A program made the translations under genes and the position numbers. The notes beneath the pieces are model-generated. The model was not told the origin of the DNA. It did not search any database and was given only the letters and a program-made list of their open reading frames with translations. A stretch of 64,000 bases of DNA from Ceratobasidium sp. AG-K (Eukaryota > Basidiomycota > Agaricomycetes > Cantharellales > Ceratobasidiaceae): positions 434,001 to 498,000 of the forward strand of contig JAWNGF010000007.1 of assembly GCA_037039685.1 (NCBI GenBank). Direction: 5' to 3'. Positions 31,803-32,567 of this stretch are shown piece after piece (position 1 is the stretch's first letter; each line of letters starts with the position of its first letter).

Positions 31803-32567
31803 TTACTGCACCGCGCAGCCCTTCCCTTTCCTCAGCATAAACTCCTCAAGTCCTTCATCTTCCTCTAAGGTCAGGTCGATGGGATTGAACGCGGTGTTCC
31901 CCGGTTCGTCCGAGAACTTCTCCCACTCTTCCCATGTCTCCTCCCTTGTCCAGTCAGCCTTGGACCAGTCCAAAACCCTTTCTTGAGCCTCCACAAACTC
32001 CTTGTCCCATTGTCGCACATCGGGCTCTGCCTCCTTCCATGCCGACACGTCAGCTTCCTCCTTCTTCCACCAGTAGGGTTCCCAGTCGATCTTCTCCTTC
32101 TGGTAACGGCCCCTCTCCATCCTCCAGTCGCTCAGGTCCTTCTCGTAGTTGGCGTCCCAGGCGTCGTTCCATCTAGGTCGGAGCGTTGGCTGTCTTCCGT
32201 CGTAACCTGGCACCCACTCGCTTGAGTACGCTCCTTCTTGTCCCCATTCAACCACCCCGAGCATGTGGGTGGAGAGGAGAACGACCTCCGAGACTTGGAA
32301 TGCGGCACACCCCCGGCAGACAAATATGTCCTTCCGTAGGAGCTGCATGCGTGTTGGCCACTTTTTCCCGACCCACTGGAATTCCCGCAGGTCTGAGTGG
32401 AGGATGTCGTCCGAGGCCCTGAAGTGCATTCTGCCCGAGCTTTGTTGTGACCTCTTGAAGACGTAGAGGGCAGCTCCGGAGTCAAGGATCCTTGCCGTGG
32501 CAAAGGCAGGTCCTTCGAGGACGCGGGTGAGATTGTTGGAGATGGTGGAGCGGGTAACGGCGGGCAT
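31803..32567 (-). CDS. E6 ORF3, intact short form, 254 aa
   Basis: The cleanest copy of ORF3, function unknown. I chose the MPA ATG at 32567 over a longer reading from 32627, because MPA is the start shared by E2, E4, E5 and E9. It has the 'FVCRGCAAFQVSEVVLLS' Cys motif near residues 80-97, a very Trp/Asp/Glu-rich second half (including 'EETWEEWEKF'), and 'IDLTLEEDEGLEE' near the C-terminus, resembling a SUMO-interacting motif. It has a few substitutions relative to E5 ORF3 and no indel. It is in the -1 frame of pol, overlapping pol from 32567 to 32132. No membrane segment is present. Confidence 0.78.
   Translation of the reverse strand: MPAVTRSTISNNLTRVLEGPAFATARILDSGAALYVFKRSQQSSGRMHFRASDDILHSDLREFQWVGKKWPTRMQLLRKDIFVCRGCAAFQVSEVVLLSTHMLGVVEWGQEGAYSSEWVPGYDGRQPTLRPRWNDAWDANYEKDLSDWRMERGRYQKEKIDWEPYWWKKEEADVSAWKEAEPDVRQWDKEFVEAQERVLDWSKADWTREETWEEWEKFSDEPGNTAFNPIDLTLEEDEGLEEFMLRKGKGCAVQ

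What the first reader, a model, noticed from the sequence alone, without database searches (positions are those of the whole stretch)
31803..32567. A third ORF (ORF3, 'MPA' protein) shared by at least six chromovirus copies
E2 (11335-12495), E3 (15114-15878), E4 (20199-21462), E5 (27627-28391), E6 (31803-32567) and E9 (60966-61463) all have a sense-strand ORF between chromodomain and 3' LTR. Those with a start begin MPA. E2, E4, E5 and E6 share a Cys motif, C-x-G-C-[AI]-[AG]-[FL]-x-V, despite large divergence elsewhere. E5 and E6 copies are intact and differ only by substitutions. There is no signal peptide or membrane segment, so it does not look like env. E7 lacks it. Typical Tf1/sushi elements encode only gag-pol, so this looks like an acquired accessory gene.
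Basis: partly seen in the sequence, partly recalled or inferred. Interest (0 to 1): 0.88.

Follow-up and report, generated by a model that had tools for sequence, protein, structure and literature searches.

The report
Conserved third gene in fungal retrotransposons
Several families of jumping genes in this fungal genome carry an extra protein-coding gene after the usual two, and in one family evolution has protected its protein about as strictly as the enzyme the elements need to copy themselves, so it probably does an important job for them.

Summary
The third ORF is real. In E6-type copies its codons evolve under purifying selection as strong as pol's: pooled dN/dS 0.065 over 21 uninterrupted copies, against 0.076 for integrase C-terminus plus chromodomain in the same copies. 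The excess of third-position variation moves from the pol frame to the ORF3 frame at the MPA start. Two corrections: E2, E3 and E4 copies in the window are broken, and there are at least two protein families. E2/E4/E3/E5/E6 share a Cys-motif domain (profile score 41.6; best of 150 shuffles 26.2); E9's protein is unrelated except for a C-terminal IDLT-acidic motif. Open ORF3s lie in the -1 frame of pol in 77 of 83 distinct chromodomain loci. A TATA-like heptamer sits about 100 nt upstream in E6, E9 and E4-type loci, not in E2 type. E6 (one) and most E9 proteins (two) carry PIAS/RNF4-like SUMO-interaction motifs. Best reading: an accessory protein made from its own short mRNA that engages SUMO-modified host chromatin proteins. 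Coding and constraint are shown; promoter and SUMO binding are inferred. A fungal chromovirus survey already drew an 'add. ORF' of unknown function (PMC2864245).

The parts
31803..32567 (-). ORF3 of element E6, 254 aa, intact, starts MPAVTR
   Evidence: translation, dN/dS and codon-position analysis
32268..32507 (-). Cys-motif domain of E6 ORF3 (residues 21-100, CRGC at 84-87), homologous to E2/E4 ORF3
   Evidence: profile-profile alignment, 78 columns, score 41.6, none of 150 shuffles as good
31854..31883 (-). candidate SUMO-interaction motif PIDLTLEEDE (residues 229-238)
   Evidence: IDLT-like pattern in 23 of 23 E6-type rows (21 distinct); 0.7% of residue shuffles of this protein contain it
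32665..32671 (-). candidate TATA box ATAAAAG, -104 to -98 from the ORF3 ATG, inside the pol tail
   Evidence: present in 28 of 28 E6-type rows, 24 distinct loci; 1 such motif in 55.6 kb of upstream pol
32132..36109 (-). pol open frame of E6 (protease, RT, RNase H, integrase, SH3_Tf2-1, chromodomain); its 3' end overlaps ORF3 out of frame
   Evidence: Pfam, translation
31765..31775 (-). polypurine tract AAAGGGGGGAG between ORF3 stop and 3' LTR
   Evidence: sequence
31305..31761 (-). 3' LTR of E6; ORF3 stop lies 41 nt before it
   Evidence: self-comparison and sequence
38079..38535 (-). 5' LTR of E6, 99.6% identical to its 3' LTR; target duplication TCTGG
27627..28391 (-). ORF3 of E5, intact, 95% identical to E6
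15114..15878 (-). degraded ORF3 of E3 (no ATG, two stops), 78% identical to E6 type
20199..21462 (-). broken ORF3 of E4 (E2/E4 type)
11335..12495 (+). ORF3 of E2 with two in-frame stops (uninterrupted relatives of 350-394 aa elsewhere in the genome)
60966..61463 (+). ORF3 of E9, 165 aa, intact, unrelated N-terminal domain
61275..61343 (+). tandem SUMO-interaction-like motifs of E9 ORF3 (EVIDLTQDDECADPIIDLMDEED)
49809..51122 (+). integrase and chromodomain of E7, which has no ORF3

Best explanation
ORF3 is a genuine accessory protein gene placed between the chromodomain and the polypurine tract of at least two fungal chromovirus lineages. Shown for E6 type: it is coding, strongly constrained, starts at its own conserved ATG, and lies in the -1 frame relative to pol, overlapping an unconstrained pol tail. 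Inferred: it is expressed from its own short mRNA, started at an internal TATA-type promoter in the pol tail and ended in the 3' LTR. Inferred: the E6-type protein is cytosolic or nuclear, with a Cys-motif N-terminal domain, a Trp-rich middle, and a C-terminal SUMO-interaction motif. It would use that motif to bind SUMO-modified host chromatin or silencing proteins, either to bring the integration complex (whose integrase carries the chromodomain) to SUMO-marked chromatin or to blunt SUMO-dependent silencing. E9 elements reached a similar arrangement with an unrelated N-terminal domain and, in most copies, two motifs.
For: dN/dS 0.065 (ORF3) vs 0.076 (pol piece) in the same 21 copies. In E6 type third-position variation follows the pol frame before the ATG and the ORF3 frame after it (22 copies, 60-nt windows). 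Start contexts TCTACA-ATG-CCTGC and TGCGCC-ATG-CCTGC recur. Open ORF3s are in the -1 frame in 87 of 93 chromodomain rows, 77 of 83 distinct loci. TATA-like motif upstream in 24 of 24 distinct E6 loci, 32 of 33 E9 and 4 of 5 E4-type, against 1 in 55.6 kb of upstream pol. Pyrimidine fraction rises downstream of it, and no AG lies between -45 and +38 in E6 type. IDLT-like motif in 23/23 E6 and 35/36 E9 rows, two in 26/36; none in gag or pol of E6 and E9. PIAS and RNF4 use VIDLT/VDLT cores, acidic flanks add affinity, and tandem motifs bind SUMO chains (passages of PMC3901395). SUMOylation acts in heterochromatin and transposon silencing (passages of PMC9406493).
Against: No transcript or binding data. 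E2-type ORF3 lacks the IDLT motif (0 of 10 E2/E4 rows) and the TATA motif (0 of 9 distinct E2-type loci). ATA is an ordinary Ile codon in E6 pol (19 of 85), so ATAAAAG there could be coding coincidence; the loci are related, so the counts are not independent. In E9 core copies the codon-position switch is not clear and ORF3 is weakly constrained (dN/dS 0.58). E6 copies were ranked by protein similarity. Structure prediction failed (pLDDT 36). Short motifs are easily over-read.
Confidence: 0.42

Rival explanations
1. ORF3 is a real, constrained protein but works inside the particle or with integrase (assembly, chaperone or integration cofactor); the IDLT-acidic motif is incidental.
For: Constraint as low as pol's suits a structural or enzymatic partner better than an arms-race protein. 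Trp-rich C-terminal half in E6 and coiled-coil-like C-terminus in E2, judged by eye. E2 type has no IDLT.
Against: IDLT-like motif in two unrelated ORF3 families, at least two per protein in 26 of 36 E9 rows, absent from gag and pol of E6 and E9.
Confidence: 0.38
2. ORF3 is the C-terminal end of Pol, made as a Pol-ORF3 fusion by -1 frameshifting in the linker.
For: ORF3 is in the -1 frame of pol and the pol frame usually stays open into ORF3. A run of six T lies just before the ATG in the five E6-type copies printed. The linker is itself under some constraint in the pol frame (dN/dS 0.29).
Against: No shared slippery heptamer is seen by eye across families; no systematic scan was run. The ATG and its context are conserved, which a fusion would not need.
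Confidence: 0.1
3. ORF3 is expressed from a spliced subgenomic mRNA, as env is in errantiviruses (recalled).
For: Own ATG far from the 5' end; pyrimidine-rich leader.
Against: No AG from -45 to +38 in 28 E6-type rows, and the only recurrent AG (-46, 26 of 28 rows) lies upstream of most of the pyrimidine tract, not after it.
Confidence: 0.08
4. ORF3 is env-like and gives the element a way to spread between cells.
For: Position between pol and the 3' LTR.
Against: No membrane-grade hydrophobic segment in five representative proteins; acidic proteins (pI 4.5-5.1; the E4-type one 7.7); no Pfam env family.
Confidence: 0.01
5. Artefact: an out-of-frame shadow of another reading frame, or low-complexity sequence.
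For: A second long open frame does overlap it.
Against: The shadow is the other frame: S/T/P-rich, dN/dS 2.8, and its openness follows largely from ORF3 codon bias.
Confidence: 0.01

Closest known systems
'add. ORF' of fungal chromodomain Gypsy elements (PMC2864245, Figure 3 legend and passages; the figure itself is not held)
   Same: An additional ORF of unknown function in full-length elements of that survey, most of them fungal.
   Different: Which elements, what position and what sequence could not be compared; the passages seen report no selection analysis, motif or promoter for it.
Non-env ORF3 of bdelloid rotifer LTR elements (PMC5408684, abstract seen)
   Same: A third ORF, not env, with different unrelated ORF3 types in different lineages.
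   Different: Those encode a GDSL esterase or a DEDDy exonuclease; no such domain is found here.
SUMO-interaction motifs of PIAS1 and RNF4 (PMC3901395, passages seen)
   Same: V/I-D-L-T core with acidic flank; tandem copies, as in most E9 rows, would suit SUMO chains.
   Different: ORF3 proteins have no RING or SP-RING domain by Pfam; binding is untested.
Env of errantiviruses such as gypsy (recalled)
   Same: Third gene after pol.
   Different: No membrane segment; no splice acceptor near the start in E6 type.

Membership tests
Chromovirus (chromodomain Ty3/Gypsy element), for E6 | PR, RT, RNase H, integrase and C-terminal chromodomain in pol, flanking LTRs | tested here: met
   Pfam hits on P0003; LTRs and 5-bp target duplication
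Retroviral/errantiviral env | signal peptide and transmembrane segment | tested here: not met
   highest 19-residue hydropathy 0.61-1.56 in five representative proteins; no dedicated predictor was available
Retroviral/errantiviral env | spliced subgenomic mRNA with acceptor before the ORF | tested here: inconclusive
   no AG between -45 and +38 in E6 type; no RNA data
SUMO-interacting protein (type b motif) | hydrophobic-D-L-T core with acidic flank, E6 and E9 types | tested here: met
   23 of 23 and 35 of 36 rows
SUMO-interacting protein (type b motif) | same motif in E2/E4-type ORF3 | tested here: not met
   0 of 10 proteins
SUMO-interacting protein (type b motif) | physical binding to SUMO | not testable with these tools
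   needs a pull-down; genes of the ubiquitin-like family PF11976 exist in the host, not sorted into SUMO and ubiquitin
'add. ORF' of fungal chromoviruses (PMC2864245) | sequence homology to that ORF | not testable with these tools
   sequence and figure not held
Bdelloid ORF3 types | GDSL esterase or DEDDy exonuclease domain | tested here: not met
   no Pfam family at E < 0.05 in the ORF3 proteins scanned

The most novel reading that the evidence does not exclude
At least two chromovirus lineages in one fungal genome independently acquired a third gene in the same slot, in the same -1 frame over the pol tail, each with an internal promoter and a C-terminal SUMO-reading motif. That would make a class of retrotransposon-encoded SUMO readers that links chromodomain-guided integration, or escape from silencing, to SUMO-marked chromatin.
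Probability: 0.25. Interest if true: 0.82.

Novelty: new variant of a known kind. Interest (0 to 1): 0.55.

Why it matters
Fungal Ty3/Gypsy elements are usually treated as gag-pol machines. A third protein constrained as tightly as pol, with 777 first-look candidates in one genome, means that life-cycle models for these chromoviruses lack a component. If the IDLT motifs bind SUMO, it would give a concrete link between selfish elements and SUMO-dependent chromatin, testable with one pull-down and one long-read RNA experiment.

Tried and rejected
Three scans of viral contigs found no relative. PDB sequence search gave only weak hits (best E-values 0.2-0.81). The idea that the pol-tail frame is a second overlapping gene was rejected on dN/dS 2.8; a mild deficit of stops in that frame remains in E2/E4 type (share of simulations with as few stops 0.025-0.15 per copy, eight related copies). 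Splicing, frameshift fusion, env and artefact were considered and kept as rivals. Homology of E9 to E2 ORF3 was tested and not found. Papers opened without use for the argument: PMC5741268 (SUMO only in its references), PMC3411680, PMC3248453 (passages).

Full report
What is there. The window is C7:434001-498000 of a 53.6-Mb genome in 17 contigs. Eleven matches to DUF6534 (PF20152, ten over its cut-off), a family I recall as mostly agaricomycete, point to a mushroom-type fungus; the species is not identified. The window holds several Ty3/Gypsy elements with chromodomains. On the minus strand E6 (LTRs 31305-31761 and 38079-38535, target duplication TCTGG) is inserted into the pol gene of E5 (LTRs 27131-27585 and 41137-41591, identical over 455 bases, duplication GTCTT). 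Between the E6 chromodomain and its polypurine tract lies ORF3, 31803-32567, 254 codons plus stop starting MPA; its stop is 41 nt from the LTR.

Is it coding? E6-type copies were taken from the 139 scored of 777 first-look matches in the genome plus E5 and E6. Twenty-five full-length matches were extracted, two with a one-codon deletion were dropped, and three of the remaining 23 carry one stop. Over these 23, pooled Nei-Gojobori dN/dS is 0.069 in the ORF3 frame, 0.060 in the part overlapped by the open pol frame and 0.068 in the rest. The same bases read in the pol-tail (+1) frame give 2.8 and 2.4. In 21 uninterrupted copies ORF3 has 0.065 and the integrase C-terminus plus chromodomain 0.076; the linker just before ORF3, read in the pol frame, has 0.29. 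In 60-base windows over 22 E6-type copies the excess of third-position variation follows the pol frame before the ATG and the ORF3 frame after it; the same plot for 18 E9-type copies shows no clear switch. The E6 copies were ranked by protein similarity, which favours well-kept ones; yet a synonymous difference of 0.35 with 3% non-synonymous cannot come from ranking alone. As a check, of the 40 best copies chosen by pol DNA (765 candidates, 40 scored), 21 have their ORF3 among the 139 (matched by eye on coordinates), 14 of them without a stop and 7 with one; the other 19 could not be judged. In one search, 125 of 139 matches have no internal stop (counted by eye).

Other families. E9-type ORF3 (150 scored matches of 192 candidates, down to about 42% identity) shows 0.58 within the core subfamily (17 copies), where the pol yardstick is itself slack (pooled 0.79, median pairwise 0.32), but 0.16 and 0.21 in two other subfamilies (5 copies each) and 0.34 between subfamilies (7). 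E2 type shows 0.21 (7 copies). The ten longest E2/E4 proteins are 350-394 aa. An E4-type protein matches the E2 region by plain tblastn (33% identity, E 5e-42). E6 against E2 needs profiles: 78 columns, score 41.6, with 0 of 150 column shuffles as good (highest 26.2) and 12.8 for the reversed control. E6 against E9 scores 24.6 (1 of 150 shuffles as good; reversed 15.4), and the aligned stretch is the IDLT tail. E9 against E2 is at chance. By identity over integrase pieces E2-E6 form one group (53-96%), with E7 and E9 39-48% from all others and from each other. E7 has no ORF3. So there are at least two kinds of ORF3 in two of three pol groups of this window.

Arrangement. Of 96 loci, 93 have a chromodomain match; these are 83 distinct loci by sequence. 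In 87 of the 93 rows, 77 of 83 distinct, an open ORF of at least 110 aa with a start codon lies in the -1 frame relative to pol; L017, L021, L075, L082, L087 and L091 do not. Usual start offsets are 131 nt (E6), 134-146 (E2/E4) and 188-194 (E9), all 2 modulo 3. The pol frame usually runs on into ORF3. Its S/T/P-rich tail is largely what C/G-ending codons in ORF3 produce when read one base on, though the E2/E4-type copies have somewhat fewer stops there than 1000 synonymous simulations.

Expression. ATAAAAG stands at -104 in all 24 distinct E6 loci. TATTAAA, TATAAA or ATAAAAG occurs in 32 of 33 distinct E9 loci, between -96 and -102 except in L074 and L089. ATAAAAG stands at -109 in 4 of 5 distinct E4-type loci and in none of 9 E2-type loci. 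The same motifs occur once in 55.6 kb of upstream pol. In the E9 pol stretch ATA is 0 of 55 Ile codons, yet ATA appears in this motif in several E9 subfamilies; in E6 pol it is 19 of 85, so there it is not unusual. Downstream of the motif the strand becomes pyrimidine-rich, and the 28 E6-type rows have no AG from -45 to +38. This fits a TATA promoter with a CT-rich leader better than a splice acceptor. It is inference from sequence; the loci are related and not independent.

What the protein may do. No Pfam family at E < 0.05 and no convincing solved relative. Seven relatives were found among 5.8 billion proteins in three searches: two for E6, one for E2 (where only the 7998 candidates sharing most words were scored), four for E9. 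The AlphaFold models are not usable. E6 type ends in PIDLTLEEDE plus 16 residues. Most E9 proteins carry two such sites, for example VIDLT and IIDLM followed by acids in the window copy. The pattern occurs in 23 of 23 E6-type, 35 of 36 E9-type and 0 of 10 E2/E4-type rows, at least twice in 26 of 36 E9-type rows; a few rows are the same locus twice. It appears in under 1% of residue shuffles of the E6 and E9 proteins tested, and not in gag or pol of E6 and E9. PIAS binds SUMO through a VIDLT core and RNF4 through tandem VDLT sites, acidic flanks adding affinity (PMC3901395, passages). SUMOylation is described as contributing to heterochromatin from yeast to mammals and to transposon repression (PMC9406493, passages). 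I therefore favour a SUMO-reading accessory protein, at modest confidence, over a particle or integrase cofactor whose motif is incidental.

Novelty. [quoted passage not shown] PMC2774666 (2009) says that a clade of fungal chromoviruses carries additional genes, beside its mention of dUTPase in such elements (passages). Bdelloid rotifer elements carry diverse non-env ORF3s (PMC5408684, abstract). In the listings of nine searches I saw no report of the selection pattern, frame relation, promoter or SUMO motif. The library lacks most subscription papers, so this is not proof of absence.

Noticed in passing
27131-41591: E6 is nested inside the pol of E5. E5's LTRs are identical (455 of 455) and E6's are 99.6% identical, so both insertions are young.
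   Followed up: yes
P0013, P0015: Two UniRef proteins labelled Globodera pallida (potato cyst nematode) are relatives of E9-type ORF3 (56% and 72% identity to the query's first sequence); fungal contamination of that assembly, or transfer, not resolved.
   Followed up: no
G000:C5 about 30-170 kb and 549-689 kb (tables): Matches recur in pairs with equal or nearly equal scores about 519.1-519.4 kb apart, which suggests a segmental duplication of 140 kb or so, or an assembly artefact.
   Followed up: no
32132-32567: E2/E4-type relatives of this overlap have fewer stops in the pol-tail frame than codon-usage simulation predicts, so a translated but unconstrained pol tail is possible.
   Followed up: partly
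G000:C4:1447509-1448790 and C2:5379744-5381018: Tandem arrays of ubiquitin-like domains, probably polyubiquitin genes.
   Followed up: no
fetched copies with stops (tables): Among interrupted ORF3 copies TGA is the commonest stop; C-to-T type decay was not tested.
   Followed up: no
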